In this document: positions 42,149 through 63,472 of the stretch, piece by piece | Numbering within the stretch: the first letter of the stretch is position 1 | How the letters are laid out: every line of letters begins with the position of its first letter | NCBI GenBank assembly: GCA_013348725.1 | Contig: CP054689.1 | Location: 1,724,501-1,788,500, forward strand | Reading direction: 5' to 3' | DNA from: Ectothiorhodospiraceae bacterium 2226 | Lineage (GTDB): Bacteria; Pseudomonadota; Gammaproteobacteria; GCA-013348725 | DNA length: 64,000 bases | Notes under the pieces: generated by a model | What the model was told of the DNA's origin: nothing | What the model saw: the letters and a program-made list of their open reading frames with translations, nothing else | Databases searched by the model: none | Program-made: the position numbers and the translations under genes

Positions 42149-44869
42149 ATGGGTCGGCTTTTCATCGAGCCAGCACGCGTGCTGGTTACTCTTCTACTGC
42201 TGCTTACGGCCGCACCGGTGCTTGCCGCAAGTGCCCAGGCGCTCGCCTGGTTGGATGCGCAACGCCAGGCCGACGGCATCTACCACACAGCAGACTCGGT
42301 GGCGCTCGAACCCCAGGTGCTGACCGAAATCCTGCTCGCGCGCGCGGCACACGGCGATGACCTTGCCGCGACGCCCGCTTCGATCTGGACCCGGTTCAGC
42401 GCCTGGGCCGAGGCAGATACCGAATTTCTCGCGGGCTGGATCCGCGCGGCGGCTGCCGCAGGCCATGACCATGCCGTAGCGCTCGGCCAATTGCGCGCGC
42501 GCCAGAACGAAGACGGCGGCTTTGCCGACCAACCTGACGGCCCCAGCACGGTGTTGGCAACGGCCTTTGCGCTGCAGGCGCTGCACGCCGCCGGCGTGGA
42601 CAGCGGCGCCGTGCTAGGCCCTGCGGTCGGTTTTCTTATGAGCCGCGCGCGCAGCAGCGGCGGTTGGGCGGTGGGCACCAATATCTCCACCGTCTATACG
42701 AGCGCGCTCGCCCTCCAGGCGCTGGCGCCCTTGGCGGGGCGCTACAACCTCGTCGCGACCATCGATGGCGCCGTCACCTACTTGCTGAACCAGCGCGTCG
42801 GCGGCGGAGCGTATGCGTCCGACTGGGAGACCGCGCACGCCTTGCTCGCCCTCATGCCGGTGCTCGCCGACCCGGGACGCTACGGCACCACCTTGCGCGC
42901 GCTCGACGACGCACAAGACCTCCACGGCAGTTGGTCGGATGATCCGTATCCGACGGCGCTGGCGGTACGCGCCCTCTCCCTGGCCGAGCGCCTCTCCGAT
43001 CCCCAGGCCCCGCCGATACCGCCGGCCCCCACCCACGGCACGATGAGCGGCACGCTGGTCGGCGACGCCGACGGCGCCCCCTTGAGCGGCGCCCAGATCA
43101 CGGTGCAGGAATTGCCGGAACTGCAGGCCGCCAGCCTGTCGACCGGCCGCTTCGAGCTCGCCCTGCCCGCGGGTGAGCCCCTCACCCTGGTTTACCAGGC
43201 GGCGGGGTATCTGCAGGCCACGCAGCCGGTGATGGTCGCGCCGGGGGAGGTCACCAGCGTCGGCACCGTGCGCCTCACCCCCATGCCCGACCACGGCCGG
43301 TTGTTCGGGATGGTTTCGGCAAAGGACACGGGCGCCGCGCTTGCCACCGCGGTGCTGCGTCTCTCAGGGGATGTCGCGCTGGATACTCCGGTAGGAGGCG
43401 ACGGCGCATTCGATGTGGCGTTGCCCGGCGGCAACTACGCCATCGCCGTCGAAGCGCCGGGCTATCACCCGGTGGCGGGCAGCTTGAGTCTGCAAGTCGG
43501 GCAGGCGATCCATTTCGCGCCGGTGCTGGTTCCTGAATCCGAGCCGCTCGACGGCACACCTGCGGCAGTGATGGGTGTCGTCCAGAACGCCGAGACCGGG
43601 GCGCCACTTGCCGGCGTATCGGTGGAGGCACCGGCCGCCGGGCTGGTGGTGCTCACCGATGCGGCGGGGCGTTTTCATTTTGAAGGGCTAGTCGCCGGTA
43701 GCTACACCTTCTCGCTAAGCCGCGACGGTTACCACGGCGCCAGCATCATGGTGGGCCTGGTGCCTTCCATTACGGCGGATCTCGGCATCATCGCTCTCCC
43801 GCCCGTTCAAGAGTCCGCCGGTCTTAGCACCGTGGTCGGTGTGGTCGTTCATGCGGACGACGGAGCGCCCGTGCCGGGCGCTCGTGCCTCGGCAGGAGCC
43901 CAATCCACCACGACCGACGGGCAGGGGCAGTTCCGCTTGGAAGGCATCACCGAGCAAGACTTCAGCTTGCTCGTCACGGCAGACGGATTCGCCTCGCGCG
44001 AATATGCGATCCAGCTGCCGGAACCCGGCACCCTGCAGATCTCCGTGGGACTGACGCCGTACGACCGCGGCGGCCTGCGCCTGAGCGGCCTGCGCGCCGC
44101 ACAACCCGCGTACGAGGCCCACAGTGAGGCGTCGCTCGAGATCGACCTGGCCAACACAGCGCAGGAAGCGCAGATCGTGCGCCTCTACCTGGAGGTCAAC
44201 GACCCCAGCGGGGACTCGCTGGGTGAGCAACCCGTCGCGCCGATAATGCGCGAGGAGGGGGCGCTCGATGCCGCCCACGTCACCGTCGAGCCGGGTGGCC
44301 AGCTGACCGAGCGCTTCTCCTGGTTCACCGAAGCGCATCCGCCGGGCGACTACCGGCTGAGCCTGCGCGCCTATCAGGCGTTCAACGGCGAGCTGCTGGG
44401 GGAGCGCTCGCTCGTGCTGCGCATCCTCGAGACCCGACGCATCGAACTCGTGTCGGTCAGGCCGAACCCGCTGTACCTCACCCAGGGTGCCGTTGAGGAA
44501 GTGGGCTTCGACGTCTTGGTGCAACACCGCTCCAACGTGCCGTTCCCGCTCGAGGTGACGTTCCAGCTCGCCGATCCGCAGGCGCAGGTGCTACACACCG
44601 GCACGGTGGCGCTCGAACTCCGCCCCGAGCAGACGAATCGCCTGGAAACGCTCGAGGGCACCGCGGTCGACGCGGCGTTACCCGGCGCACACCCGATCGA
44701 GGTGTTCGAGACCTCCGGCTACGCGCCAGCGGTGGTGCACGGACAGCCCCTGTACGTCGCGCCCGGCACACGCGTCGAGATTCGACAACGCCGAACGCCC
44801 GGCGTCATCGCGCCGGACGGCAGCAACCCGATCGACATCGAGATCAAGCTGGAAGGGAAGGATCAATGA
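42149..44869 (+). CDS. Secreted alpha/alpha-barrel protein with carboxypeptidase-regulatory-like repeats
   Basis: A 906-residue protein. Sec signal 1-27 (VTLLLLLTAAPVLAAS). Residues ~28-290 contain prenyltransferase/squalene-cyclase-like repeats (ARQNEDGGFADQPDGPSTVLATAFALQAL and three similar units), forming an alpha/alpha toroid. Residues ~300-630 hold four carboxypeptidase-regulatory-like beta-sandwich repeats (GTLVGDADGAPLSGA, GVVQNAETGAPLAGV, GVVVHADDGAPVPGA). The rest is beta-rich. The stop overlaps the next start. First gene of a three-gene set of large exported proteins; binding or scaffolding role inferred. Confidence 0.72.
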   Translation: MGRLFIEPARVLVTLLLLLTAAPVLAASAQALAWLDAQRQADGIYHTADSVALEPQVLTEILLARAAHGDDLAATPASIWTRFSAWAEADTEFLAGWIRAAAAAGHDHAVALGQLRARQNEDGGFADQPDGPSTVLATAFALQALHAAGVDSGAVLGPAVGFLMSRARSSGGWAVGTNISTVYTSALALQALAPLAGRYNLVATIDGAVTYLLNQRVGGGAYASDWETAHALLALMPVLADPGRYGTTLRALDDAQDLHGSWSDDPYPTALAVRALSLAERLSDPQAPPIPPAPTHGTMSGTLVGDADGAPLSGAQITVQELPELQAASLSTGRFELALPAGEPLTLVYQAAGYLQATQPVMVAPGEVTSVGTVRLTPMPDHGRLFGMVSAKDTGAALATAVLRLSGDVALDTPVGGDGAFDVALPGGNYAIAVEAPGYHPVAGSLSLQVGQAIHFAPVLVPESEPLDGTPAAVMGVVQNAETGAPLAGVSVEAPAAGLVVLTDAAGRFHFEGLVAGSYTFSLSRDGYHGASIMVGLVPSITADLGIIALPPVQESAGLSTVVGVVVHADDGAPVPGARASAGAQSTTTDGQGQFRLEGITEQDFSLLVTADGFASREYAIQLPEPGTLQISVGLTPYDRGGLRLSGLRAAQPAYEAHSEASLEIDLANTAQEAQIVRLYLEVNDPSGDSLGEQPVAPIMREEGALDAAHVTVEPGGQLTERFSWFTEAHPPGDYRLSLRAYQAFNGELLGERSLVLRILETRRIELVSVRPNPLYLTQGAVEEVGFDVLVQHRSNVPFPLEVTFQLADPQAQVLHTGTVALELRPEQTNRLETLEGTAVDAALPGAHPIEVFETSGYAPAVVHGQPLYVAPGTRVEIRQRRTPGVIAPDGSNPIDIEIKLEGKDQ

Positions 44870-47800
44870 TGGCAAGCGCAATGAGGAACGCCCGCATCGT
44901 CATGCTCCTCGCGGCGCTGGCCGTGCTGCTGGGCATGGTCTCCCAGGAAGCGCAGGCCTCGCACTTTCGCTTCGGCCACGTGTACTGGGAGTCACGACCG
45001 GAAGTGAGTCCAAATACGGTTGAGTTCATGGTGGTCGTGGCGTTCCGGCGCAATGGTTACCGCGGTACTGCTCCGGATGGTCGCGTTCAGGTTGGCGATA
45101 TCATGTCTGTCGCCACCGGCGGACTCATCAAGCCGCGCCTCAATTTCGGCGATGGCTCCGTCTCCAGTGTTCTCGAATTCGTAGTGACCGCCTACAGCGT
45201 GGAAGAGAATTGGGCGATCGGACTAGGGAGGGTTCCGGGCACTGCCGGCCCAGGAATACTGAAGACGTATGCTGCTCCAACCGCGGCAGGCGGATCGCCA
45301 TGGACGGCGTTCATCAGCGACGACTGCAGGCTTACGTCGATTCGGAACTACTCATGCCGTTATCGAGTCGAGACGAAGGTCAATCTTGCATCGAGTCATC
45401 GCTCACCGCGGAGCAACCTGCCATCGATCGTTTCGTGCGGTCGTGGGCGTACGTGTCAGTTTCATGTGCCTGCGACCCAGGAAGTCGGCATCGCGACGCG
45501 GTGGAGGCTGTCGACGCGGCAGGAATCCGGCATCGCGACTCCTCCCGGGCCTCCCTATTCACAAGCCCCGCTGACCGTCGACTCGCTGACGGGCGTGGTG
45601 ACATGGGAGATCGATTCGACGACCCCGCTCGGTCTCTACAGCACCGCGGTCACCATGGAGAGCTCGGATAATGGGGTACTTACGAGTGCCTCAGCGATCG
45701 AGTTCCTGGTGCACGTTGTTGATGAGGACGTCAACCAACCGCCGGCCTTCGACGTGCCGCCCACTCCTCAAGCAAACGAGACTATCTCCGTTCCAATAGG
45801 TGCGCCGCTTGAGTTTGTTGTTCAGGCCGGCGATCCCGACCTCAGCGATAATGTCACGCTCAATCACGTTGGACTACCCAACGGCGCCGAGTTCATCGCC
45901 GCGCCCGGCAATCCGGCGACCGCAACCTTCCGCTGGACGCCGACCGAGGCACAGCTCGGCGAACACCTGGTAACTTTCACCGCCATCGATAACCGCGGGC
46001 GTGCCGCTCTTCCGCATCAATTGCGCATTGCGGTCATCGACCCGGCCATCCGCGATGTCTCGGTGGTCGCCGAGGTGAACGACGACAATCTCCGCATCGC
46101 CGGCGGCTCGTTCACACGCCCACCCACCCAGATCGATCAGCACGCCGGTTTCACACGCGTGGAGTGGTATTTCCCGACCCTCACGCCGCAGGATGCCGAG
46201 GACCTCAACTTCACCGTCGATCTGCAGGCGCCTATCGGCGGCGAGCGCCGGCTCGTGACCCGCACGGTGTTCCTCGAGTACACCGACATCAACGGCAACC
46301 GCATTCGTCAGGAGTTGGACCCCCAGTACGTCGACGTGTTGCCCGGCATCTTCGCTGTCGACGTCGCCACCGACCGCCCGGTATACGGCGCCAGCGAGAC
46401 GGCGCAGATTTCCTCCACGCTCGACAACCTCAGCCGCTTCACGGCGACGGCGCAGGTCGACCTCGCCGTGGTGGACGAGGTGGGCGCGTTGGTGGCGGAC
46501 CTCGGCCTGTACGATGCGCCGGACCTGCTCTCGGGCGAGAGCCGCGCGTTTGAGCATCTGACCTTCGAGACCGGGATGGTGTACATGGGCCACTACGGAG
46601 TGCGCGCGCGGGCTCTTGATGCGACCGGCATCCAGGTCGCCGAAGCGTTCGCACCGTTTGAAATCCGCGCCGACCTTGCCACCAGTGTGGGGGCGCAGGT
46701 CGGCACCGACCGCCCGCTGTACCAGGCCGGGGAGACCGTGGAGATCCGGGACCGGGTGCACAACCTCGCCGCGAACCTGCTCATGCAGGACCTGAGGGTG
46801 GACACCGCCGTTCGCGATCCCGCGGGCGAGGCGCTGTGGGAGGCGAGCGCGTCGCTCGCGCAGCTGCGCCCGAACACCTTCAGCGATCTAGTCTACAACC
46901 TGCCGTTGGGGCGCGCGGCCCCGGGCACCTACAGCATTACGCTGGACGTGCATCATCCCGACGGCGCGCTCGCTGCCCGCGACATCACCACTTTCGAGGT
47001 CGCCTCCACGGCGGAGACCGGCGTCGGCCTTGCGGGCGATGTCAGCGCCTATCCCATGCCGGTGCTACGCACCGAGCGCGTGGCCTTGGCGTATCGCGTC
47101 ACCAACGACGGCAACGCGCCGCTGAGCGACCTGCCGATCACCTTGTCGATCCTCGACATGGCCACCGAGCAGGTCTATGCCAGTTGGACACGCGAACTGG
47201 CATCTTTGGCCCAGGGAGCCACGGCCGATTTCGACCAGGCCTGGGATGCGGTGGTGCCGAGCTCCGGCGGCCAGTATGTCGCCGTGCTCACCGCGCAGGT
47301 CGGCGACGAGCAACGGATTCTTGCGACAGCCCCCGTGCTGGTGGCCGAGAAGCTCGAGACCGCTATCCTCCCCGAGTACCGGGGGCGCCTGCTGGCCCTG
47401 GTCGATGGCCCCACCGCGCTCATGGATGCCGAGGCCTGCCCCGGCGCGCAGGAGCTGGAGTTCGCTTTGAGCGCCCCGGTTGGGCTGCACGCGGACCACC
47501 ACGTTACGGTCGATCTCTACGATGCCGCGGGCGGCCTGCTCGATCAGGAGACGGCGGTGGTGGGCGGTTTCCATTCCGCCTGGATGAACCGCGGCGCCGA
47601 AGGTCGGTTCCTCGCCCTGTCGCGCCTCGACGCCGGGCGTCTGCAGTGGAGCCTGATGAACCTATCGGCGCCGGCTGTCACGCCGCAGTTGCGCGTGGCG
47701 GTCACCGTGCAGGGGCCGGAGGGCGATCTGCAGTTCGACAGCGGCTACTTCACGCATGCCTGTGCGCCGGGGGAGGCCGACAGCCACGGTGACTTCACGC

Positions 47801-48726
47801 TGATCAATGCCTGGGGTGCCGATGCGGCCGATCCGCTCGGCCCGCGCGACGCCGCGAGCCTGGCGACCCAACGCCGTTACCTGGAAGCCATGCTGCGCGC
47901 CCGTGGTTGGGCGTACACCTTGGTGAGCAGTGCCGAGGCGTTCGAGCAGCAGTTCGACGCGGCGACCTATACCGCCTACGCCCTGTTCAGCGAGCACATC
48001 AAACTGCCCGAAGCACTCCTGCACGCGTTGGTTGACGCGGTCGATCAAGGCGCGGGACTGCTCGTTGCCGGCGCGCATGATCAGCGCAACGGGCGTGTCG
48101 ACCAGTCGCTGGGTATCGACTTCCGCGGGCGCTTGCCGAACATCGCCGGCATCGAAGTCGACCCCCACGGCACCTTCGCCGGCGGCAACGCCGAGTTCCT
48201 GAGCGGCCTGATGCCATTGCGCGCACGCTTGGCGGGCGCCGCCCCCGTGGCCACCTACACGCCGCCGCCGCCGAATGGTGAGGCAACCGCCGCTGCGCAT
48301 CACAGCTACGGGGACGGGCGCTCGGCCTACATCGGCTTCGATGTGCTGGCCGAAGGCGCACTCACCGGCTCGGCGTTCCACGCGGGCCTCCTGGACGCCG
48401 CCTTGATGCATGTGGTGGGTGTTCCACCGACGCCCGCCGCGCGCGGCCTTGCTATCGAGATCCGCAACCACGGCCACGCGGCCGACGGGGAACTCATCCT
48501 GCCCGCAGCATTCGGCGTGCAGGTGCTCGACCTCGGGCTGGCACGCCTCGACAGCGCCGGAAATCTCGTCTGGGCCTTCCACCTGGAAGAGGGGGGCATC
48601 GCCCGTCTGCCCTTGTGGCTGCGCCGCGAACCGGATGGCCCCGACGAAGTCGCTGCGCTGCTGCGGATTACGACCACCGGCGGCGTGCTGGTCGACTACG
48701 GCACAGTCATCGTCCCGCTGCCATGA
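44866..48726 (+). CDS. Large secreted multi-domain protein (Ig/CARDB-like, amidotransferase-like end)
   Basis: A 1286-residue protein with a Sec signal (~1-31, cleavage near AQAS). N-terminal domain starts SHFRFGHVYWESRP; a cadherin/Ig-like domain follows (~285-390; NQPPAFDVPP, DPDLSDNVTL, FRWTPTEAQLGEHLVTFTA). Several CARDB/DUF11-like beta domains (~480-900) precede a Rossmann-like region (~985-1190; LGPRDAASLATQRRYLEAML, LVDAVDQGAGLLVAGAHD) resembling class I amidotransferase/ThuA-like folds. ATG overlaps the upstream stop. Residues ~205-230 contain a small internal duplication (VGIATRWRLSTRQESGIAT). Probably cell-surface or periplasmic; function unknown. Confidence 0.68.
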   Translation: MMASAMRNARIVMLLAALAVLLGMVSQEAQASHFRFGHVYWESRPEVSPNTVEFMVVVAFRRNGYRGTAPDGRVQVGDIMSVATGGLIKPRLNFGDGSVSSVLEFVVTAYSVEENWAIGLGRVPGTAGPGILKTYAAPTAAGGSPWTAFISDDCRLTSIRNYSCRYRVETKVNLASSHRSPRSNLPSIVSCGRGRTCQFHVPATQEVGIATRWRLSTRQESGIATPPGPPYSQAPLTVDSLTGVVTWEIDSTTPLGLYSTAVTMESSDNGVLTSASAIEFLVHVVDEDVNQPPAFDVPPTPQANETISVPIGAPLEFVVQAGDPDLSDNVTLNHVGLPNGAEFIAAPGNPATATFRWTPTEAQLGEHLVTFTAIDNRGRAALPHQLRIAVIDPAIRDVSVVAEVNDDNLRIAGGSFTRPPTQIDQHAGFTRVEWYFPTLTPQDAEDLNFTVDLQAPIGGERRLVTRTVFLEYTDINGNRIRQELDPQYVDVLPGIFAVDVATDRPVYGASETAQISSTLDNLSRFTATAQVDLAVVDEVGALVADLGLYDAPDLLSGESRAFEHLTFETGMVYMGHYGVRARALDATGIQVAEAFAPFEIRADLATSVGAQVGTDRPLYQAGETVEIRDRVHNLAANLLMQDLRVDTAVRDPAGEALWEASASLAQLRPNTFSDLVYNLPLGRAAPGTYSITLDVHHPDGALAARDITTFEVASTAETGVGLAGDVSAYPMPVLRTERVALAYRVTNDGNAPLSDLPITLSILDMATEQVYASWTRELASLAQGATADFDQAWDAVVPSSGGQYVAVLTAQVGDEQRILATAPVLVAEKLETAILPEYRGRLLALVDGPTALMDAEACPGAQELEFALSAPVGLHADHHVTVDLYDAAGGLLDQETAVVGGFHSAWMNRGAEGRFLALSRLDAGRLQWSLMNLSAPAVTPQLRVAVTVQGPEGDLQFDSGYFTHACAPGEADSHGDFTLINAWGADAADPLGPRDAASLATQRRYLEAMLRARGWAYTLVSSAEAFEQQFDAATYTAYALFSEHIKLPEALLHALVDAVDQGAGLLVAGAHDQRNGRVDQSLGIDFRGRLPNIAGIEVDPHGTFAGGNAEFLSGLMPLRARLAGAAPVATYTPPPPNGEATAAAHHSYGDGRSAYIGFDVLAEGALTGSAFHAGLLDAALMHVVGVPPTPAARGLAIEIRNHGHAADGELILPAAFGVQVLDLGLARLDSAGNLVWAFHLEEGGIARLPLWLRREPDGPDEVAALLRITTTGGVLVDYGTVIVPLP

Positions 48727-48804
48727 CCGATGGCCGGCCTCGTCGGCCGGCCGCCCAGAACACCAACAAGAACCCACGACCAGAACAATAACAGGGACAT
48801 CGCT

Positions 48805-51798
48805 ATGACCTCGCTCCGCTACTGCCGCGACGGCGCACCGCCGGCCTACCAGGCGCCCGCTATCCTTTCGCTCCTGCGGCAGAGCTACCTGAGTCGAACG
48901 CTGGCCGCGCTGGTGATCGTCGCGTTCACGATGCTCATCACGCAGCCGGTTGCGGCCGCCTTCCAGGGCGCAGCACAAACCCCGCCCGCGCCGCAACCGG
49001 TGCCCCCGAGCAAGGCGGACCAACTCTCGCGGGCGCTGCAGAAAGCGCGCGACGTCTCCGCCGTGGCCGTCGACCGCGCGGCGCGCGGGCAGGCCATCGC
49101 CGAGGAGCGCCGCGAACTCGCTACGCTGCGTCGCCAGCTGGTGGACCTGCGCGCCGAGGCCATGGCCGACTTTGCCTCCGTCGGCGCTATGCTGCAGGCG
49201 CGCGAGGTCCCGGAGGTCATCCACCAGCGTCAACGCGACGCGGTGGCCGCGTTCAATGCCGAAATGGACGGCCTGCTCGAAGAACTCGCCGAGGTGGAGG
49301 CCGCGGATACCGATGAGGGCGTGCGGCGCGGCCTCGAGCGCGCCAAGCAACGCCTGACCGAGCGTCAGCTCGAGCGCAGTCAGCACCCTTTCAATCCCAA
49401 CGAGCTGCCCCACGGCCCGCAGCTCCCGAATCCGGACAATCGCCCCAAGCTCGAGGAGCACGAGTTCCGCGCCGCCGGCCTCTACAGCAACCCCCTGGTC
49501 CAGCTCGCGGCGCTGGAGAACTACCGCTTCGACACCCTGCCAGGCGCCGCCGATCCCGCCTACCTGGGCGAGACGGTCGAGGTGCCGCTCACGCCCGCCA
49601 TCCGCGCCAAGGCCGAAGAACTCGGTTACGAGCCGGTCAACATCTACCACTGGGTGCGCAATCACGTCGAATGGGTCCCATCCTGGGGCGCGGTGCAGGA
49701 CGCCGACCTCACGCTGTCGGCGCAGCGCGGCAACGCCATGGATACCGCCAGCCTGCTCATTGCCCTGCTGCGCGCCTCCGGCGTGCCGGCGCGCTATGTT
49801 CACGGCACCATCGAGGTCCCCGAAGCGCGCTTCCGCAATTGGGCCGGCGGCTTCGAGAGCATCGAAGCCGCCATGAACTACGCGTCCTCCGGCGGTATCC
49901 CCACCACTGGCATCACTCAGGGCGGGCGCGTGGTCACAGTGCGTATGGAACACGTCTGGGCTGAGGCGGCAGTGGACTTCCTCCCCTCCCGTGCCGCCAT
50001 CATGCGCGAGGCCGACACCTGGCTCGCGCTCGATGCCAGCTACAAACAGTACGAATACCTGGAAGGGCTCGATGTGGCCGCCATCGCCAACCTCGACGGC
50101 GAGGCCTTGGCCGCGAGCTTCATGGCCAGCGGTGCCGTAGACGAGGCGGCCGGCTGGGTGCAGGGGCTGGACGCCTCCATTATCGAGGCCGCGCAGCAAG
50201 ACGCCCGCCAGGCGCTGGAAGCCCACATCGAGCAAATGACCGATCCCACGGTGGGCGACGTCATCGGCGGCCGTAAGGTCGTCATCCGCGAGGCACCCGT
50301 GCTGCCCTCCGCCATGCCCTTTGCGCGCATCGTCGAAGGCGCCCGCTACGCTGCGCTACCGGCCGCCCTGCAGCCCACCATCACCTTCGGTCTGGGTGCC
50401 GACATCCTCGGCACGCCACTCGCCCAGGCCCAGTTCCCCTGGGCGCAGCTCAACAACCGCAAGGTGACCCTCTCCTTCCGTCCCGCCACGCAGGCCGATG
50501 AGGATGCGCTGCACGCGCTCCTGCCCGAAGGCGAAATCACCGACATCAGCCAGCTGCCCAGCAGCATCCCCGCCTACCTCATCAAGGTCGTGCCCGAGCT
50601 AAAGGTCGAGGGCGAGACGGAGCTTGCGGGCGCAGCCATGAAGCTGGGCGAAGAACTGGCCTTCCGGTACAGCGTGCGCGATCCGGTCCACGGCATGCGC
50701 CATTATCCAAATAAAGTGTTAGCCGGTTCGTACATTGCTGTAGGCGTGATAGGCGGCAATGTGGCCCCAAGCAGTCTGCGGGATGCTCAGAGTGAGCTGG
50801 AATCTACCCGCACGAAGCTTGGGTCAGGAGAGGATGGGCAACTCGAAGGGTTGACCCGCGAAGACTTGCTGGGCGAGATGTTTCATGCTGGGTTATTAGG
50901 CTATTTCGCGCAGTATAATGCTGTAGGACGTCTGATTGCCCAGAGTCGAGGGGGTCATTTCCAGCTCGTCAATTCGGCAGGAAGCTATGGTTACGTGCCA
51001 ACCGTCACGTACTTTTTTGGTGTCCCTCGTGCTGTTATCCCTGGTGGCGTAGAAATGGACCTCGACCGGGTGGCGCATGTGTCGAATGTGGATCAACAGC
51101 CCCCCTCCATGTGGGCTGCCTTCAACTTTCATGTTGGCGCCGTAGCTTCGGCACTTGAGCATGTACTGCCCGAACAGATGTTCAAAAGGAACGGCGGCAC
51201 CGGCGGGGCGGTTTCTGCAGTGAAGGCACTGCAGCTTGCCGCCGCACAGGGCCAGCGAATCTACCACATCACCAAGGCAAATCAGGGCATCATGTTGCCG
51301 GATGTCCGGCAAAGCCAAGTGGTAATGAATGACATTTCTGCGGCGCTGGCGGTAGGTAAAGAGGTTGTTGTGCACGCGAGCCCGATCAGTGTGCCAGGCT
51401 GGGTTGGTGCGGGCTATGTGATTGTCGATCCAAGTACGGGCGCCGGTGCGTGGAAGATCGGGGGAGGCGCAAATGGGGGCTTTCTCTCGGAAGATGCGGC
51501 AGGAATACTTGGGTTTATGGGGTTTGCCCTCGGGATGATAGGCGCTGGATTTGGCGCGCCCATCCTCGTGTTTCTCGCAGCTGCTATCGCTATGATCATA
51601 GCCGTTAACCTAATCCTCGAATATTTAACCGTAGATCATAACTGCTCGGGTCTTGATTACCTTATCGGTCTCGCAGTGCTGGCCGCGTTTGCTGGTATAT
51701 TTGCGTCGGGTATCGGGGCGATAATTGTCATGTATGTCGGTCTAATCGCCGGAGGGGCAGCCTTAGCAACCGCTAAATCTAGCGTTTGTGCAAACTAG
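48805..51798 (+). CDS. Secreted pseudo-transglutaminase protein with variable hydrophobic C-terminal tail (full-length copy)
   Basis: A 997-residue protein: signal/anchor helix (~32-52), coiled coil (~65-170), transglutaminase-like core (~270-420) in which His383 and Asp410 are kept but the usual Cys position reads RGNAMD (Ala311). A conserved module (~345-889) ends with GAWKIGGGA; the last ~108 residues form about four Gly-rich membrane helices with no match to the other tails. From ~50,700 the DNA turns AT-richer and departs from the cassettes, which are near-identical upstream. Similar transglutaminase modules precede variable ends in RHS/polymorphic-toxin proteins (recalled family knowledge). 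Start at 48805; an earlier frame lacks a signal at the right place. Confidence 0.75.
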   Translation: MTSLRYCRDGAPPAYQAPAILSLLRQSYLSRTLAALVIVAFTMLITQPVAAAFQGAAQTPPAPQPVPPSKADQLSRALQKARDVSAVAVDRAARGQAIAEERRELATLRRQLVDLRAEAMADFASVGAMLQAREVPEVIHQRQRDAVAAFNAEMDGLLEELAEVEAADTDEGVRRGLERAKQRLTERQLERSQHPFNPNELPHGPQLPNPDNRPKLEEHEFRAAGLYSNPLVQLAALENYRFDTLPGAADPAYLGETVEVPLTPAIRAKAEELGYEPVNIYHWVRNHVEWVPSWGAVQDADLTLSAQRGNAMDTASLLIALLRASGVPARYVHGTIEVPEARFRNWAGGFESIEAAMNYASSGGIPTTGITQGGRVVTVRMEHVWAEAAVDFLPSRAAIMREADTWLALDASYKQYEYLEGLDVAAIANLDGEALAASFMASGAVDEAAGWVQGLDASIIEAAQQDARQALEAHIEQMTDPTVGDVIGGRKVVIREAPVLPSAMPFARIVEGARYAALPAALQPTITFGLGADILGTPLAQAQFPWAQLNNRKVTLSFRPATQADEDALHALLPEGEITDISQLPSSIPAYLIKVVPELKVEGETELAGAAMKLGEELAFRYSVRDPVHGMRHYPNKVLAGSYIAVGVIGGNVAPSSLRDAQSELESTRTKLGSGEDGQLEGLTREDLLGEMFHAGLLGYFAQYNAVGRLIAQSRGGHFQLVNSAGSYGYVPTVTYFFGVPRAVIPGGVEMDLDRVAHVSNVDQQPPSMWAAFNFHVGAVASALEHVLPEQMFKRNGGTGGAVSAVKALQLAAAQGQRIYHITKANQGIMLPDVRQSQVVMNDISAALAVGKEVVVHASPISVPGWVGAGYVIVDPSTGAGAWKIGGGANGGFLSEDAAGILGFMGFALGMIGAGFGAPILVFLAAAIAMIIAVNLILEYLTVDHNCSGLDYLIGLAVLAAFAGIFASGIGAIIVMYVGLIAGGAALATAKSSVCAN

Positions 51799-51809
51799 AG
51801 GAGACATTC

Positions 51810-52049
51810 TTGCAATCTGGGTTAGCCAACTTTCTGCTGTTTCTTACCGACGCGGCTATTGTAGTCTTCGCGGGCATGGCGATCTTTGGGGCGCTGAAAG
51901 GAAGAGCGTACGCGTTAGGGCGTTGGTACACCGCCGCGGAGGGGAGATCTGCATATTGGCAAGTGATTATCGGCTATGTTTTTCTCGTGATCGTGTTGGC
52001 GTATATTCGGTTCGCTGTTTATCCCGAGGCACTTTACCCCCATCTGTAA
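51810..52049 (+). CDS. Small membrane protein following the full-length variable tail (candidate partner 1)
   Basis: A 79-residue protein with two to three helices (LANFLLFLTDAAIVVFAGMAIFG, WQVIIGYVFLVIVLAYIRFAV). A TTG start at 51810 is proposed because GAGGAG lies seven bases upstream; an earlier TTG (51786) would overlap the upstream stop. It sits 11 bases after the variable tail, the position of immunity genes in toxin modules. No sequence relation to the other partners is visible. Partner function is inference. Confidence 0.5.
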   Translation: MQSGLANFLLFLTDAAIVVFAGMAIFGALKGRAYALGRWYTAAEGRSAYWQVIIGYVFLVIVLAYIRFAVYPEALYPHL

Positions 52050-52128
52050 TAATTGATGCTTGGCTATAGGTAACGTGAGGAAAAAGGGGTGGAAAAAGGG
52101 GGCGGTGCGTTCAACCGGTCGATGCAAC

Positions 52129-52310
52129 AGCCCGCGTAGGTTGGGCTGACGAAAGGAAGCCCAACGTTGTTCCCGATCGCGCCGGATCGGACTACTCAGT
52201 CTGATCAGTTTTTTGCATCGCTAAAGGCGACGAGCACGCGTACGAGGGGCATGCACATCGAGAGCTTGAGGGGTGTTGGGCTTCCTTCGTCAGCCCAACC
52301 TACGTGAACT
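52129..52310. repeat. Palindromic interspersed repeat, copy 1 (full length, 182 bp)
   Basis: Each end is a hairpin: GTTGGGCT...AGCCCAAC on the left (52141-52165) and GTTGGGCT...AGCCCAAC on the right (52275-52299), together forming ~29-bp terminal inverted repeats around a ~110-bp centre that codes for nothing. Right terminus CTACGTGAACT (52300-52310) supplies the GTG start of the next frame. Translating the ends gives MLGFLRQPNL-type peptides, not genes. Confidence 0.8.
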
Positions 52311-54316
52311 GGGCCGGCGGCTTCGAGAGCATCGAGGCGGCGATGGACTACGCCTCCTCGGGCGGGATCCCCGCCACCAGCCTCACCCAGGGCGGCAGCG
52401 TCGTGATGGTGCGCATGGAGCACGTCTGGGTCGAGGCGGCGGTGGACTTTCTGCCCTCGCGCGCTGCCATCATGCGCGAAGCCGACACCTGGCTCGCGCT
52501 CGATGCCAGCTACAAGCAGTACGAATACCTGGAAGGGCTCGATGTGGCCGCCATCGCCAACCTCGACGGCGAGGCCTTGGCCGCGAGCTTCATGGCCAGC
52601 GGTGCCGTAGACGAGGCGGCCGGCTGGGTGCAGGGGCTGGACGCCTCCATTATCGAGGCCGCGCAGGAAGACGCCCGTCAGGCGCTGGAAGCCCATATCG
52701 AGCAAATGACCGACCCGACCGTGGGCGACGTCATTGGCGGTCGCAAGGTCATCATTCGCGAGGCGCCCGTGCTGCCCTCCGCCATGCCCTATGACCGCGT
52801 CGTCGATGGCGCCCGCTACGCCGCGCTGCCGGCCGCCCTGCAGCCCACCATCGCCTTCGGTCTCGGCGCCGACATCCTCGGCACGCCACTCGCCCAGGCC
52901 CAGTTCCCCTGGGCGCAACTCAACAACCGCAAGGTAACGCTCTCCTTCCGTCCCGCCACGCAGGCCGATGAGGATGCGCTGCACGCGCTCCTGCCCGAAG
53001 GCGAGATCACCGACATCAGCCAGCTGCCGAGCAGCATCCCCGCCTACCTCATCAAGGTCGTGCCCGAGCTAAAGGTCGAGGGCGAGACGGTGCTGGCAGG
53101 CGCAGCGATGAACCTGGGAGAGGAGCTGGCGTTCAGGTACAGCGTGCGCGACCCGATCCACGGTCTGCGCCATTATCCGAACAAGGTAGTGGCGGGTTCC
53201 TACCTCGCGGTGGCGGTGGTCGGCGGCGGGGTGGCAACGGGCAGCCTACGAGAGGCGCAGGCCCGCCTCGAAGCCACCGGCGGCGCGTTGGCCTCGACGG
53301 ACGATACATTGCTCGCCGGGCTCACTCGCGAAGACCTACTGGGGGACATGTTCTACGCAGGACTTCTGGGGTACTTCGCGCAGTACCAAGCCCTGGGACA
53401 CCTCTCCGCCCTAAGCCAGAGCGCGCACTTCCAACTCGCAACCTCGGCGGGGACCTATGGCTACGTTCCCCAGGTGAGCTATTTCTTCGGCCTGCCCCGC
53501 GCAATCACACCGGGGGGAGTCGAGATGGACCTGGACAGGGTGGCACACACCTCCAGCGTTGACGGTCAGGGCGCCGATGCCTGGCGCCAGTTCAACTTCC
53601 AGCTCGGCGCGCTGTCCTCAGCCCTGGAGCACGCCGTGCCCGAGCAGATGTTCGTGACGCCCGAGAACCCCGGCGAGGCGGTCTCGGCGGTCAAGGCTCT
53701 GCAGCTCGCCGCCCAAGGGGGTCAACGGGTTTATCATGTCAATCAGGCCAATCAGGCCGAGGCTCTCACGAACATCCGCCAGAACAGTCTGACCATGAGC
53801 GAAATCCGCGCAGCGTTGGCGGTGGGTAAGGAGGTGATCGTGCACACCGACCCAATCAGCGTGCCGGGGTGGAGCGGCGCGGGGTATGTGATCATTGATG
53901 CGGAGACGGGAGCGGGGGCTTGGAAGATTGGGGGTGGAGCAAAGGGTAGCTTCTTCGAGGATGTGGGGGTGGGGCTGTGGATATTGCTGCAAGCCCTAAT
54001 CTCCAATGCGGAGAATGCTGCTTTACGCGCTCTCGGCGCGCTCAGCCAAGCAATAGAATTCATAGAGAACGTATACTCAGCGATCACTAGTTGCCCATCG
54101 AATGCCTTGCCGCTCGTCGTTTTCGCGATCGTTGCATCTACTTTGATTTCAATTGCGTTCGTGGCGGCGGCCGCCGCGGTGGGTGGTGTGTTTGCGGCTA
54201 TCGCTGCGAGCATATTCGTTTCGTCAATATTTCATTGGGCGATTGGGAGCATGTTGAACATATGTCGTCTGGTCGCAGTGAGGAGCGAAAATGATTCGAC
54301 CGCTGCTACTGCGTAG
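52304..54316 (+). CDS. Cassette 1: 5'-truncated pseudo-transglutaminase module with its own hydrophobic tail
   Basis: An open frame of 670 codons that begins at the repeat terminus (GTG AAC TGG) and matches the full-length protein from its residue 346 on, so signal peptide, coiled coil and first half of the transglutaminase-like domain are missing. It runs to GAWKIGGGAKG, then ends in ~122 unrelated residues with two or three membrane helices (PLVVFAIVASTLISIAFVAAAAAVGG). No promoter or good ribosome site is seen, so it is probably silent as such. Residues up to the motif are ~98% identical to cassette 2. Confidence 0.7.
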   Translation: MNWAGGFESIEAAMDYASSGGIPATSLTQGGSVVMVRMEHVWVEAAVDFLPSRAAIMREADTWLALDASYKQYEYLEGLDVAAIANLDGEALAASFMASGAVDEAAGWVQGLDASIIEAAQEDARQALEAHIEQMTDPTVGDVIGGRKVIIREAPVLPSAMPYDRVVDGARYAALPAALQPTIAFGLGADILGTPLAQAQFPWAQLNNRKVTLSFRPATQADEDALHALLPEGEITDISQLPSSIPAYLIKVVPELKVEGETVLAGAAMNLGEELAFRYSVRDPIHGLRHYPNKVVAGSYLAVAVVGGGVATGSLREAQARLEATGGALASTDDTLLAGLTREDLLGDMFYAGLLGYFAQYQALGHLSALSQSAHFQLATSAGTYGYVPQVSYFFGLPRAITPGGVEMDLDRVAHTSSVDGQGADAWRQFNFQLGALSSALEHAVPEQMFVTPENPGEAVSAVKALQLAAQGGQRVYHVNQANQAEALTNIRQNSLTMSEIRAALAVGKEVIVHTDPISVPGWSGAGYVIIDAETGAGAWKIGGGAKGSFFEDVGVGLWILLQALISNAENAALRALGALSQAIEFIENVYSAITSCPSNALPLVVFAIVASTLISIAFVAAAAAVGGVFAAIAASIFVSSIFHWAIGSMLNICRLVAVRSENDSTAATA

Positions 54317-54536
54317 TATTCTCTGGATCCTGGCAGGATTGCTTTTCATCTGGCCACTGGCGTTGATGATGGCGGGGGGGCAAACTGTGGCGTTCGTGAT
54401 CGCTTCCATCGGTTGGGGGCTATTCATTCCAGCGCTTGATCACGTGGATATGAAGCCGATTCGAACGCCGCGACAGCGCTACGTAATCAGCATATCGCTC
54501 CTCATGCTTAGCGTTCTTCTTGTGCGCCCCGGCTAG
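54291..54536 (+). CDS. Small membrane protein paired with cassette 1 (candidate partner 2)
   Basis: An 81-residue protein with three helices (LLRSILWILAGLLFIWPLALMM, TVAFVIASIGWGLFIPALDH, YVISISLLMLSVLLV). The ATG lies 26 bases inside the cassette 1 frame and has GAGGAG just upstream, so it can be translated independently. Unrelated to the other partners in sequence but equal in position and type. Confidence 0.55.
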   Translation: MIRPLLLRSILWILAGLLFIWPLALMMAGGQTVAFVIASIGWGLFIPALDHVDMKPIRTPRQRYVISISLLMLSVLLVRPG

Positions 54537-54745: not shown

Positions 54746-54825
54746 GGCTTGGAAGACAGTCATGAGCACAGAGTCGTCCACGCTTATGCGGCCCGGAGCA
54801 CGCATGCCCTGGCGCTGCAGCGGGA

Positions 54826-54990
54826 GCCCGCGTAGATGGGCTGAAGAAAGGAAGCCCAACGTTGTTCCCTGTCGCGCCGGATCGGATTACTCGGTCTGAT
54901 CAACTATCTGCATCGCTCGACGAGCACGCGTACGAGGGGCATTCACATCAAGAGCTTGAGGGGCGTGGGGCTTCCTTCGTCAGCCCAACC
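54826..54990. repeat. Palindromic interspersed repeat, copy 2 (degenerate)
   Basis: Same centre as copy 1 (GCACGCGTACGAGGGGCAT present) but the outer left hairpin is mutated and the right end reads CCCAACCCAAG instead of CCTACGTGAACT. It stands back to back with copy 3. Confidence 0.65.
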
Positions 54991-55099
54991 CAAGCCCGCG
55001 TAGGTTGATGTGATGGTCTCCTCCCCTTTCTAACCGGCGTCATGTGCGCCACGATGGAGATGTTAAGCAACCATCGAAACGAAAGAAGAGGAGACCGCC

Positions 55100-56111
55100 A
55101 TGAAGATTACAACGGTCGGGCTGGACCTGGCAAAGAGCGTGTTCCATGTGGTGTGTTTTGATGCCTCACACCACGAGGTTGGCAAGCGGATGCTGCGTCG
55201 AAGCGAGGTCATGAAGTACTTTTCCCACCTGGAGCCCTGCCGGGTGGCGATGGAGGCCTGCGCCGGCGCTCATTATTGGGGACGTGAGCTGCAGCGGTTG
55301 GGTCACCGGGTAAAGCTGATTGCGCCGCAATTCGTGAAGCCGTACGTGCAGGGCAACAAGAATGACTACAACGATGCCCGGGCGATAGCGGAGGCCGCGA
55401 CCCGGCCGGCGATGCGCGCAGTGAGCATCAAGAGCGTCGAGCAACAGGACATCCAGGCGCTACATCGCCTGCGGGCGCAGCGCATCAAGGAACGCACTGC
55501 CCTGTGCAACCAGCTGCGGGCGTTGGTGGCGGAGTATGGACTGGTGATGAACAAGGGTGGCCTCGGTACGACGTGCTGTGCCGCAGTTGCTGGAAGACGC
55601 TGAAAACGGCCTGAGCACCCTGTTTCGCGGCCTCCTGAAGCGGGGTTATGACCAGCTTGTCGAGTTAGAGGGCCACATTGACTTCTACACTGGTCAGATT
55701 GAGCAAACCAGCCGTCAGGACGAGCGTTGCAGGCGCTTGCAGGCCGTGCCGGGATTCGGACCGATCGTGGCCAGCGTCTTTGTCGGCCAGGTGGGCGATG
55801 GCAAGGCTTTCCGGCGGGGGCGCGACGTGTCAGCGGCGCTGGGTCTGGTGCCGCGCCAGCACAGCAGCGGCGGCAAGGAGGTATTGCTGGGGATCAGCAA
55901 GAAGGGCGACGGCTATTTACGCAGCCTGCTAGTCCACGGCGCGCGCAGTGTGGTGCTGCACGCCAAGGCCAAGGACGATAAATTGAGTCAATGGATTAAC
56001 CGACTGTGCGAACGACGGGGCATCAACAAAACCGCCGTCGCGCTGGCCAACAAACTGGCCCGTATGGGCTGGGCGCTGTTACGGAACGACACCAAATATT
56101 GCCCCGCCTGA
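55100..56111 (+). pseudogene. IS110-family transposase, frameshifted (copy A)
   Basis: N-terminal DEDD/RuvC-like part (55100-55603) with GLDLAKSVFHVV and KNDYNDARAIAEA; C-terminal transposase_20 part in the +1 frame (55557-56111) with LQAVPGFGPIVAS and LGLVPRQHSSGG, including the region that carries the conserved serine of the family. The break lies near 55555: one base too many, or a +1 shift, since a single frame would read on as ASVRRAVPQLLEDAENG. No obvious slippery run. The identical break occurs in copy B. Confidence 0.8.
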
Positions 56112-56379
56112 GCGGATACGATAACGATACTGAGTTTGAGGTAACCTGCCGACGATTGCGAAGATAACGTGAAGTGATGACATCACAGGTAAGACCGGCG
56201 TATTGAAAACCTGCTATGCCCATAGGCTGATTCAAGCCGATAGGTTGATGAGGACGATACGCGCAGCTCACATCAAGGCCAGAGAAGACATCTCCTCATC
56301 AACAGGCCGGATATATGGAAGCAATCCTGTCACTGTCTGAAACACACGGTATCTTGCAAGCGGGGAGGAGACCATATAT
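56112..56379 (+). ncRNA. Candidate bridge RNA region of IS copy A
   Basis: IS1111-group elements carry their bridge RNA in the noncoding right end. This 268-bp end contains an 11-bp stem, GTTGATGAGGA (56244-56254) with TCCTCATCAAC (56293-56303), and TAGGTTGATG (56241-56250), which equals the ten bases spanning the left insertion junction (55001-55010). Exact RNA ends unknown. Confidence 0.45.
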
Positions 56380-56547
56380 GGGCTGACGAAAGGAAGCCCA
56401 ACGTTGTTCCCGATCGCGCCGGATCGGACTACTCGGTCTGATCAGCTTTTTGCATCGCTAAAGGCGACGAGCACGCGTACGAGGGGCATGCACATCGAGA
56501 GCTTGAGGGGTGTTGGGCTTCCTTCGTCAGCCCAACCTACGTGAACT
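56380..56547. repeat. Palindromic interspersed repeat, copy 3, right part
   Basis: Rest of copy 3 after the IS insertion; the left part is AGCCCGCGTAGGTT at 54993-55006. It is nearly identical to copy 1 and ends with CTACGTGAACT at the start of cassette 2. Confidence 0.75.
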
Positions 56548-58475
56548 GGGCCGGCGGCTTCGAGAGCATCGAGGCGGCGATGGACTACGCCTCCTCGGGC
56601 GGGATCCCCGCCACCAGCCTCACCCAGGGCGGCAGCGTCGTGATGGTGCGCATGGAGCACGTCTGGGTCGAGGCGGCGGTGGATTTTCTGCCCTCGCGCG
56701 CTGCCATCATGCGCGAGGCCGACACCTGGCTCGCGCTGGATGCGAGCTACAAGCAGTACGAATACCTGGAAGGGCTCGATGTGGCCGCCATCGCCAACCT
56801 CGACGGCGAGGCCTTGGCCGCGAGCTTCATGGCCAGCGGTGCCGTAGACGAGGCGGCCGGCTGGGTGCAGGGGCTGGACGCCTCCATTATCGAGGCCGCG
56901 CAGGAAGACGCCCGTCAGGCGCTGGAAGCCCATATCGAGCAAATGACCGACCCGACCGTGGGCGACGTCATTGGCGGTCGCAAGGTCATCATTCGCGAGG
57001 CGCCCGTGCTGCCCTCCGCCATGCCCTATGACCGCGTCGTCGATGGCGCCCGCTACGCCGCGCTGCCGGCCGCCCTGCAGCCCACCATCGCCTTCGGTCT
57101 CGGCGCCGACATCCTCGGCACGCCACTCGCCCAGGCCCAGTTCCCCTGGGCGCAACTCAACAACCGCAAGGTAACGCTCTCCTTCCGTCCCGCCACGCAG
57201 GCCGATGAGGATGCCCTGCACGCACTTCTGCCCGAAGGCGACATCACCGACATCAGCCAGCTGCCGAGCAGCATTCCCGCCTACCTCATCAAGGTCGTGC
57301 CCGAGCTAAAGGTCGAGGGCGAGACCGTTCTTGCAGGCGCAGCGATGAACCTCGGCGAGGAGCTGGCGTTCAGGTACAGCGTGCGCGACCCGATCCACGG
57401 CCTGCGCCATTACCCGAACAAGGTCGTCGCGGGCTCCTACCTGGCGGTGGCGGTGGTCGGCGGCGGGGTGGCAACGGGCAGTCTACAAGAGGTGCAGGCC
57501 CGCCTCGAAGCCACCGGCGGCGCGTTGGCCTCGACGGACGATACATTGCTCGCCGGGCTCACTCGCGAAGACCTACTGGGGGACATGTTCTACGCAGGAC
57601 TTCTGGGGTACTTCGCGCAGTACCAAGCCCTGGGACGCCTCTCCGCCCTAAGCCAGAGCGCGCACTTCCAACTCGCAACCTCGGCGGGGACCTATGGCTA
57701 CGTTCCCCAGGTGAGCTATTTCTTCGGCCTGCCCCGCGCAATCACACCGGGGGGAGTCGAGATGGACCTGGACAGGGTGGCACACTCCTCCAGTGTTGAC
57801 GTCCAGGGCGCCGACGCATGGCGTCAGTTCAACTTCCAGCTCGGTGCACTGTCGTCAGCGCTGGAACACGCCGTGCCCGAGCAAATGTTCGTGACGCCCG
57901 AGAACCCCGGCGAGGCGGTCTCGGCGGTCAAGGCTCTGCAGATCGCCGCCCAAGGGGGTCAACGGGTTTATCATGTCAATCAGGCCAATCAGGCCGAGGC
58001 TCTCACGAACATCCGCCAGAACAGTCTGACCATGAGCGAAATCCGCGCAGCGTTGGCGGTGGGTAAGGAGGTGATCGTGCACACCGACCCAATCAGCGTC
58101 CCGGGGTGGAGCGGCGCGGGGTATGTGATCTTTGATGCGGAGACGGGAGCGGGGGCTTGGAAGCTTGGGGGTGGGGCGAACGGGGGAGTGCTGGTCGGCG
58201 GTGTCGCGATACTCGGCATTGGGCTCGTGGCGCTGATGGGGGCGGCCGCCGGCGTTCTTATATCGCCGATGCTGATTGCTTTAACAATTGCGTTGGCGCT
58301 GCATATCATCCTCCTAGAGATCGCATTTAACCCAGATCTGAAATGGACCGACGTGAAGTCTCAGGTATTGGCTATCACGGCCATTGTTGCTACGTTCTTT
58401 TTCGCACTGCCAGCCACCGTAAAGACGCTGGTGGGTTTGATAATAGCCGAGGTTTTGACGTTATGGTCACTGTGA
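56541..58475 (+). CDS. Cassette 2: 5'-truncated pseudo-transglutaminase module with a different tail
   Basis: An open frame of 644 codons starting at the same residue as cassette 1 (equivalent to residue 346 of the full-length protein) and ~98% identical to it up to GAWKLGGGANG. The last ~96 residues are unrelated and hydrophobic (VAILGIGLVALMGAAAGVLISPMLIALTIALALHIILLE), with about three or four helices. No promoter or ribosome site is visible. Lies between the two inverted IS copies. Confidence 0.7.
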   Translation: MNWAGGFESIEAAMDYASSGGIPATSLTQGGSVVMVRMEHVWVEAAVDFLPSRAAIMREADTWLALDASYKQYEYLEGLDVAAIANLDGEALAASFMASGAVDEAAGWVQGLDASIIEAAQEDARQALEAHIEQMTDPTVGDVIGGRKVIIREAPVLPSAMPYDRVVDGARYAALPAALQPTIAFGLGADILGTPLAQAQFPWAQLNNRKVTLSFRPATQADEDALHALLPEGDITDISQLPSSIPAYLIKVVPELKVEGETVLAGAAMNLGEELAFRYSVRDPIHGLRHYPNKVVAGSYLAVAVVGGGVATGSLQEVQARLEATGGALASTDDTLLAGLTREDLLGDMFYAGLLGYFAQYQALGRLSALSQSAHFQLATSAGTYGYVPQVSYFFGLPRAITPGGVEMDLDRVAHSSSVDVQGADAWRQFNFQLGALSSALEHAVPEQMFVTPENPGEAVSAVKALQIAAQGGQRVYHVNQANQAEALTNIRQNSLTMSEIRAALAVGKEVIVHTDPISVPGWSGAGYVIFDAETGAGAWKLGGGANGGVLVGGVAILGIGLVALMGAAAGVLISPMLIALTIALALHIILLEIAFNPDLKWTDVKSQVLAITAIVATFFFALPATVKTLVGLIIAEVLTLWSL

Positions 58476-58720
58476 TCGTAAAAGTCATTCCCCACGTCTT
58501 GGTTCTACTGCTTGCGATTATCGCGTTGAACAACGCAGATGATTTTTCTGTGCCCGCGGCCGCAGTCGCGGGCTTGTTGATAGCCTGTATAATGGGGGCG
58601 GCGAAGGGAATGTCATCGTTCGTGACATACTCGTGGCCCTGGGTGTTAAGTTTGTTTTACTTTCTCGCAATCATTGGGTTCCTCGCTCTGCAGTTATTGA
58701 CGCTAATGATTTATTCCTGA
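58463..58720 (+). CDS. Small membrane protein paired with cassette 2 (candidate partner 3)
   Basis: An 85-residue protein with three helices (IPHVLVLLLAIIALNN, AAAVAGLLIACIMGAA, WPWVLSLFYFLAIIGFLALQLLTLMI). ATG at 58463 overlaps the last codons of cassette 2 by 13 bases and has GAGG upstream. AT-richer than neighbouring DNA. No relation in sequence to the other partners. Confidence 0.55.
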   Translation: MVTVIVKVIPHVLVLLLAIIALNNADDFSVPAAAVAGLLIACIMGAAKGMSSFVTYSWPWVLSLFYFLAIIGFLALQLLTLMIYS

Positions 58721-60924: not shown

Positions 60925-61098
60925 GGCGGTCTCCTCTTCTTTCGTTTCGATGGTTGCTTAACATCTCCATCGTGGCGCACATGACGCCGGTTAGAAAGGG
61001 GAGGAGACCATCACATCAACCTACGTGAACTGCCCGAAGGCGACATCACCGACATCAGTCAGCTGCCGAGCAGCATCCCCGCCTACCTCATCAAGGTC

Positions 61099-62160: not shown

Positions 62161-62170
62161 CAGGTATAGC

Positions 62171-62440: not shown

Positions 62441-62498
62441 TGGTTCACAACGGATGGGCGCTACATCGAGAGCTTGAGGGCGTCGGGCTTCCTTCCTC

Positions 62499-62680
62499 AG
62501 CCCGCGTAGGTTGGGCTGACGAAAGGAAGCCCAACGTTGTTCCCGATCGCGGCGGATCGAACTACTAGGTATGATCAGCGTTTTGCATCGCTAAAGGCGA
62601 CGAGCACGCGTACGAGGGGCATTCACATCGAGAGATTGAGGGGTGTTGGGCTTCCTTCGGCAGCCCAACCTACGTGAACT
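62499..62680. repeat. Palindromic interspersed repeat, copy 6 (full length, 182 bp)
   Basis: Same ends and centre as copy 1, ending CTACGTGAACT at 62670-62680. A partial right half of another copy (62464-62498) is joined directly to its left end. Confidence 0.8.
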
Positions 62681-63467: not shown

Positions 63468-63472
63468 GAAAA

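What the first reader, a model, noticed from the sequence alone, without database searches (positions are those of the whole stretch)
50600..51798. The full-length gene is a mosaic with a breakpoint near 50,690
From 49,840 to ~50,690 the full-length gene and the cassettes are nearly identical in DNA; from ~50,700 the full-length gene becomes visibly AT-richer (for example CATTATCCAAATAAAGTG) and its conserved module differs at many residues although the homologous domain goes on for ~190 more residues. This is what is expected if a 3' segment carrying module end, tail and partner was swapped in from a diverged donor.
Basis: partly seen in the sequence, partly recalled or inferred. Interest (0 to 1): 0.72.

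Follow-up and report, generated by a model that had tools for sequence, protein, structure and literature searches.

The report
Toxin gene with a swapped tip
A bacterial gene that looks like a weapon against competing bacteria has had the last third of its coding sequence, with the neighbouring protection gene, replaced from a distant relative, leaving a sharp seam in its DNA; such swaps are known in other toxin families, and this is a clear example in a little-described one.

Summary
The step is real. Against cassette c1, the full-length gene (48730-51798) is 99% identical at 49996-50196, 92% at 50197-50708 and 63% at 50709-51465. The breakpoint is 50709 (50694-50715; log-likelihood gain 103; a step beats a gradient). 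GC3 of the full gene alone changes at 50701 (0.855 to 0.551), and synonymous divergence rises from 0.27 to saturation.

The gene belongs to a polymorphic-toxin family: an inactive transglutaminase domain, a conserved module without RHS repeats, then a hypervariable hydrophobic tail and a small membrane partner (immunity-like). Relatives carry NucA/NucB, CDI-EC869-like or DUF6310 tips on the same module, and arrays of orphan cassettes. Module mosaicism recurs in three other genomes.

Best explanation: recombination inside the module brought in the module end, tip and partner (50.7-52.1 kb) from a diverged, AT-richer homologue. Tip swapping is known (Rhs, CDI); the family variant is little described. 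Extra: units are separated by REPIN-like repeats that abut truncated modules here and in a second genome. Donor not found; the monophyly test of the 3' segment was not significant (p 0.11).

The parts
48730..51798 (+). Full-length gene, 1022 aa: hydrophobic N-terminal segment, helical region, inactive transglutaminase-like domain, conserved module, hydrophobic variable tail
   Evidence: Pfam Transglut_core E 1.8e-14 at residues 291-436; catalytic Cys position is Ala (GNAMDTA) and non-Cys in the four aligned full-length homologues
49996..50196 (+). 99% identical tract shared with cassettes (recent conversion tract)
   Evidence: change points 49996 and 50197; dS 0.045
50197..50708 (+). 92% identical part of the module shared with c1/c2
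50694..50715 (+). Breakpoint interval (best 50709); falls inside a predicted beta strand, not at a domain edge
   Evidence: identity change point, GC3 change point 50701, module model m6c621e970fc1 strand 111-120
50709..51471 (+). Imported end of the conserved module (63% to c1, GC3 ~0.55)
51472..51798 (+). Variable tail (toxin tip), four TM-like windows
   Evidence: module-tail border shared by the family
51786..52049 (+). Partner (immunity-like) gene, 87 aa, two TM-like windows, overlaps the end of the toxin gene
   Evidence: no Pfam match
52128..52311 (+). REPIN-like repeat (two inverted GTAG-tagged palindromes); right end GTGAACTG abuts the truncated module of c1
52304..54316 (+). Orphan cassette c1: module from residue ~371 plus a different tail
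54291..54536 (+). Partner of c1, 81 aa, TM
54825..54990 (+). REPIN-like repeat next to the IS110-type element
54999..56378 (+). IS110-type element inserted in the repeat; transposase ORF interrupted (55100-55603 and 55557-56111)
   Evidence: 99.9% inverted copy at 59623-61025; ends lie in the palindrome
56379..56548 (+). REPIN-like repeat abutting c2
56541..58475 (+). Orphan cassette c2 (97% to c1 in the module, different tail)
58463..58720 (+). Partner of c2, 85 aa, TM
61030..62160 (+). Orphan cassette c3: c1-like module to ~61404, repeat end CTACGTGAACTG (61402-61413), then a diverged module end and another tail
62168..62440 (+). Partner of c3, ~90 aa, TM
62498..62681 (+). REPIN-like repeat
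62751..63302 (+). Small membrane-protein gene with no toxin fragment (possible leftover immunity gene)
   Evidence: position and TM windows
63308..63469 (+). REPIN-like repeat
63717..63974 (+). Small membrane-protein gene, 85 aa (possible leftover immunity gene)
42149..44869 (+). Upstream operon gene (CarboxypepD_reg repeats, weak terpenoid-cyclase-like toroid matches)
44866..48726 (+). Upstream operon gene (MG2, He_PIG Ig-like domains); large surface-type proteins with Ig-like, CarboxypepD_reg, VWA or MG2 domains lie directly upstream in several relatives

Best explanation
The locus is a polymorphic-toxin operon. A secreted or surface protein (inactive transglutaminase domain plus conserved module) carries at its C terminus an exchangeable tip, here a hydrophobic, probably membrane-inserting toxin, and the short overlapping gene after it encodes a membrane immunity protein. 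Downstream lie orphan cassettes, each a 3' piece of the module with another tip and another immunity gene. At some time homologous recombination with a crossover in the module at about 50709 replaced the end of the module, the tip and the immunity gene (about 50.7-52.1 kb) by the matching block of a diverged, AT-richer homologue; the right-hand junction most likely lies in the repeat at 52128-52311. Another exchange with a cassette homogenised 49996-50196. Shown: the step, its position, the composition shift, the polymorphic architecture, recurrence in other genomes. Inferred: membrane toxicity, immunity function, the right-hand junction, the order of events.
For: Breakpoint 50709 with log-likelihood gain 103 and an independent GC3 change point at 50701; dS 0.27 to saturation; low GC continues to the repeat at 52.1 kb. 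Conservation across outside homologues is only slightly lower after the break than before it, so selection does not explain the step. The full gene is the odd copy downstream only. Same module with NucA/NucB DNase, CDI-EC869-like and DUF6310 C-termini in relatives, orphan arrays with partner genes in G355 and Ottowia, and module mosaics in G169, Ottowia, G355 and in c3, with tails diverging at residue ~913-918. Polymorphic toxins with inactive N-terminal transglutaminase domains, and tip exchange with standalone cassettes, are described in PMC3482391; main-orphan recombination through 522 bp of 95% identity is described for Salmonella Rhs, PMC3967940.
Against: No donor sequence was found among the ~780 genomes searched or the other collections. 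The AU test does not reject one clade for full, c1 and c2 in the 3' segment (p 0.11). dS is already rising just before the breakpoint (0.46 at 50590-50706). The window's own tails have no Pfam match, so toxicity is inferred from relatives and hydrophobicity. Only one genome of this lineage is held, so no pre-swap allele can be shown.
Confidence: 0.85

Rival explanations
1. The 3' parts are simply old paralogues, and only the 5' part (49996-50708) was recently homogenised by gene conversion between the main gene and a cassette; nothing was imported.
For: There is a clear conversion-like tract at 49996-50196 (99%, dS 0.045) between 82% and 92% flanks. The AU test does not exclude a single origin of the 3' segments.
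Against: The full gene changes composition at the same point while c1 keeps native GC3 until near its tail; downstream of the break the full gene is the odd copy relative to outsiders; old paralogy in the same genome does not predict GC3 0.55 in a region of 67% GC.
Confidence: 0.1
2. Intrachromosomal deletion swap as in Salmonella Rhs (a mechanistic sub-case of the best explanation): an orphan cassette that used to lie in this array fused with the main gene by a single crossover in the module, deleting what lay between; the cassette had come from elsewhere before.
For: Orphan cassettes with the same module stand directly downstream, and the known Rhs mechanism works this way (PMC3967940).
Against: A diverged cassette (63% to the main module) offers little homology for a crossover at 50709 unless its own upstream arm was more similar; no remnant of the deleted part was found.
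Confidence: 0.4
3. Relaxed or diversifying selection on the last ~250 residues of the module produces the divergence without recombination.
For: The module end lies next to the variable tip, and its mean conservation in the family is slightly lower.
Against: Synonymous sites jump as well (0.27 to saturation), GC3 shifts, and the step is within ~20 bases.
Confidence: 0.02
4. Assembly chimera between two similar loci.
For: The array is repetitive, and repeats are a usual cause of misassembly.
Against: The genome is a single contig, 100% complete; the imported block occurs once in the genome; the reading frame is intact across the junction; similar mosaics occur in other genomes.
Confidence: 0.03

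Closest known systems
Polymorphic toxins with an N-terminal inactive transglutaminase domain (Zhang et al. 2012, PMC3482391)
   Same: Transglutaminase domain with a lost catalytic residue towards the N terminus, variable C-terminal toxin, partner gene, standalone cassettes
   Different: There the domain is said to be always followed by RHS repeats; here RHS is absent and a ~540-residue module leads directly to the tip. The RHS-bearing form exists among distant relatives (DUF6531 + RHS_repeat).
Rhs main/orphan rearrangement in Salmonella (PMC3967940)
   Same: Truncated orphan toxin genes with immunity genes downstream of a main gene; recombination through shared homology puts a new tip on the main gene
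   Different: Not Rhs: no RHS repeats. The exchange here is fossil and the donor block is 63% identical to the cassettes; the observed Salmonella event used 95% identity over 522 bp.
CdiA-CT/CdiI modules and orphans (PMC3150448)
   Same: Exchangeable toxin-immunity pairs and downstream orphans
   Different: No CdiA-type secretion domain or CdiB partner matched here; upstream genes are Ig-like and alpha-2-macroglobulin-like proteins instead.
REPIN / GTAG-tagged REP elements and their RAYT transposases (PMC3733652, PMC8266576)
   Same: GTAG-tagged palindromes in inverted pairs at the cassette borders
   Different: Known REPs are usually numerous and scattered in intergenic space; here there are 17 by the strict pattern in the genome, 14 of them in two toxin arrays. 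The nearby RAYT-like ORFs match Y1_Tnp only below the Pfam cut-off.

Membership tests
Polymorphic toxin systems | Conserved N-terminal part with alternative C-terminal tips | tested here: met
   Nearly all within-genome pairs in five genomes diverge at residue ~913-928; the exception is G355_3/G355_4, two orphans with similar tips
Polymorphic toxin systems | Known toxin domains among the tips | tested here: met
   NucA/NucB, CDI_toxin_EC869_like, DUF6310 in relatives; not in the window's own tips
Polymorphic toxin systems | Small immunity gene directly after each tip | tested here: inconclusive
   Small TM-protein genes follow each tip in the window and small genes follow each in G355; protection cannot be tested here
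Polymorphic toxin systems | Standalone orphan cassettes | tested here: met
   Window c1-c3; G355, Ottowia, G031 arrays
Polymorphic toxin systems | Tip is toxic and partner protects | not testable with these tools
   Needs expression tests
Inactive-transglutaminase polymorphic toxins | Transglutaminase fold with lost catalytic residue | tested here: met
   Transglut_core match; the Cys position is not Cys in any of five full-length homologues aligned (GNAMD, GNAVD, GGAID, GNDYD, GNATD)
Inactive-transglutaminase polymorphic toxins | Followed by RHS repeats | tested here: not met
   No RHS match in the window gene or in the close relatives scanned
[quoted passage not shown]
   A hydrophobic stretch is visible near residues 57-76; no signal-peptide predictor was run
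Rhs | RHS/YD repeats | tested here: not met
CDI (CdiA) | CdiA secretion domain and CdiB | tested here: not met
   No such Pfam match in the full gene or in the two genes directly upstream
REPIN | Two GTAG-tagged palindromes in inverted orientation with a spacer | tested here: met
   52136-52165 (+) with 52275-52303 (-); 62506-62535 (+) with 62645-62673 (-)
REPIN | Cognate RAYT transposase in the genome | tested here: inconclusive
   Three RAYT-like ORFs by eye in the 2.94-Mb array; two scanned, Y1_Tnp E 7e-4 and 1.8e-3, below cut-off; three better Y1_Tnp matches elsewhere in the genome

The most novel reading that the evidence does not exclude
REP-type palindromic repeats act as movable borders of toxin cassettes: REPIN insertion or processing inside the module creates the orphan cassettes, each ending up as repeat - module piece - tip - immunity - repeat, and the repeats then serve as portable right-hand arms for putting new tips on the main gene. 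The evidence is that truncated modules abut the same repeat end (GTGAACTG) at three different module positions, that a second genome (G031) has repeat-bordered cassettes of the same family, and that 14 of the 17 repeats of this genome lie in two toxin arrays.
Probability: 0.2. Interest if true: 0.72.

Novelty: new variant of a known kind. Interest (0 to 1): 0.45.

Why it matters
It shows a clear fossil of a tip exchange in a toxin family that has no RHS or CdiA scaffold, and shows that the exchange need not happen at the module-tip border but anywhere in ~540 residues of shared module. It also adds a possible link between REP elements and toxin cassettes that can be tested in sibling genomes.

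Tried and rejected
Integron reading: the ~180-base repeats with inverted ends first looked like attC sites, but they are GTAG-tagged palindromes of REP type; no integrase search was made. Rfam: nothing. Donor search with the imported block in the families of G336 and G205 and in 398 genomes of the phylum: nothing closer than c1/c2. Viral and plasmid collections: no useful relative. Repeats at cassette borders in the other arrays (G355, Ottowia, Nitrospiraceae): no convincing REP-like pairs, so the repeats are not a general feature of the family. Tree-based rejection of a single origin of the 3' segment: not significant. CTG at all three repeat-module junctions: present in intact copies at two of them, while the full gene has ATTG at the first, so it stays a lead. 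Whole-protein structure model too weak (pLDDT 53; its PDB search gave nothing); the second half of the module alone folds well (pLDDT 86) but has no significant match in PDB or BFVD. PADLOC and NCBIfam: nothing informative for the toxin or the cassettes.

Full report
Observation. The full-length gene (48730-51798) and the cassettes c1 (52304-54316) and c2 (56541-58475) align without gaps from 49837 to about 51465. A change-point analysis against c1 gives four blocks: 49837-49995 82%, 49996-50196 99%, 50197-50708 92%, 50709-51465 63%. The main step is at 50709 (50694-50715), log-likelihood gain 103, never reached in 200 shuffles. A step fits far better than a smooth gradient (lnL -641.6 against -674.6 linear and -660.1 quadratic). 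Synonymous distance goes from 0.045 and 0.27 to saturation, and nonsynonymous distance from 0.03 to 0.24. Base composition, which needs no alignment, breaks at the same spot in the full gene: GC3 0.855 before 50701, 0.551 after; in c1 the drop comes only near the tail. Low GC then continues to about 52.1 kb, where a repeat begins.

Which copy is odd. Outside homologues were taken from genomes in the same class and from named records. Before the break, full and c1 are equally far from them; after it, c1 is closer to nearly every one of the nearer relatives. Counts of sites at which one copy alone departs from the outsider are 30 v 13 (Nitrospiraceae), 18 v 7 (G336) and 26 v 7 (G205) after the break, and about even before it where that could be counted. 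A likelihood test for a separate origin of the 3' segment is not significant (p-AU 0.11); the orphan relatives are short and give little resolution. No donor was found.

What the gene is. The protein has a transglutaminase-like domain that lacks the catalytic Cys in the window and in the four aligned full-length homologues. It is followed by a conserved module ending in a G-A-(W/Y)-K-I-x-G-G-x-N-G-G-like motif; after this the sequences of paralogues stop being alike. The tails of the window and of most relatives are strongly hydrophobic; others match known enzymes or toxin families: NucA/NucB-type DNase (G143), CDI-EC869-like (Bacillaceae MAG) and DUF6310 (G109). Distant relatives carry the same region in front of DUF6531 and RHS repeats. 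Short genes, mostly for membrane proteins, follow the tips. G355 has a main gene and four further tip-partner pairs plus a module remnant; Ottowia sp. oral taxon 894 has a main gene and four orphans. Zhang et al. 2012 (PMC3482391) described polymorphic toxins with inactive transglutaminase domains, always followed by RHS repeats; the form here has none. A large surface-type protein (Ig-like, CarboxypepD_reg, VWA or alpha-2-macroglobulin-like domains) is encoded directly upstream in the window and in several relatives, which suggests surface display; this was not tested.

Recurrence. The same kind of internal step occurs between the two full-length genes of G169 (99.3% falling to 34-64%), between Ottowia main and orphan (98%, 60%, 89-100%), in G355 (61% to 96%), and in c3 of this window (94% to 61%). 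The positions differ (residues ~207-227, 673, 747, 799, 835, here 660), so there is no fixed recombination site. The breakpoint here falls inside a predicted beta strand of the module. Tip exchange between main and orphan toxin genes has been observed in Salmonella Rhs (PMC3967940); I read the window as a fossil of the same process with a more diverged partner.

Repeats. Units of the array are separated by ~140-184-base repeats, the complete ones made of two inverted GTAG-tagged palindromes, that is REPIN-like elements. Their right end GTGAACTG abuts the truncated modules of c1, c2 and, at two other module positions, c3. The genome has 17 such palindromes by a strict pattern: six in this array, eight in an Rhs orphan array at 2.94 Mb, three at 0.83 Mb. 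Cassettes of the same family in genome G031 are also bordered by palindromic repeats of this type with a different sequence, but arrays in G355, Ottowia and others are not. IS110-type elements sit inside these palindromes, a habit known from ISPpu9 of the IS110/IS492 family (PMC8450116). Published RAYT enzymes cut at CT dinucleotides next to such palindromes (PMC8266576), which would suit the ...AACTG ends; this stays a hypothesis.

Structure. The second half of the module (c1 52832-53938) folds with good confidence (pLDDT 85.8, pTM 0.81) and has no match with E below 0.001 in PDB or in the viral model library; no library of cellular protein models was available.

Verdict. The phenomenon is a known one in a new variant of a known kind of system.

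Noticed in passing
52128-52311, 54825-54990, 56379-56548, 59507-59645, 62498-62681, 63308-63469: REPIN-like repeats separate the units of the toxin array; the same palindrome is otherwise found (strict pattern) only at an Rhs orphan array (2.94 Mb) and at 0.83 Mb in this genome.
   Followed up: partly
L065:4247-13354: Rhs orphan array of the same genome with RHS fragments, small membrane partners, REP palindromes, three RAYT-like ORFs and an uninterrupted IS110-type transposase ORF (4247-5260).
   Followed up: partly
54999-56402 and 59623-61025: Two 99.9% identical inverted IS110-type elements inserted in the palindromes; in both, the transposase ORF is split, unlike the copy in L065.
   Followed up: no
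61402-61413: c3 carries a repeat end (CTACGTGAACTG) fused in frame inside its module, a former cassette border now read as protein.
   Followed up: partly
52832-53938 (module, second half, in c1): Confident predicted fold (pLDDT 86) without a significant PDB or BFVD match; possibly an undescribed fold of a pre-toxin module.
   Followed up: partly
L062:340-5473: Genome G031: array of tips and lone membrane-protein genes, with palindromic repeats between units, one of them abutting a truncated module directly.
   Followed up: partly
L055:12797-15964: Second full-length gene of G169 has a long, mostly non-hydrophobic C-terminus that looks like an enzyme but has no Pfam match.
   Followed up: no
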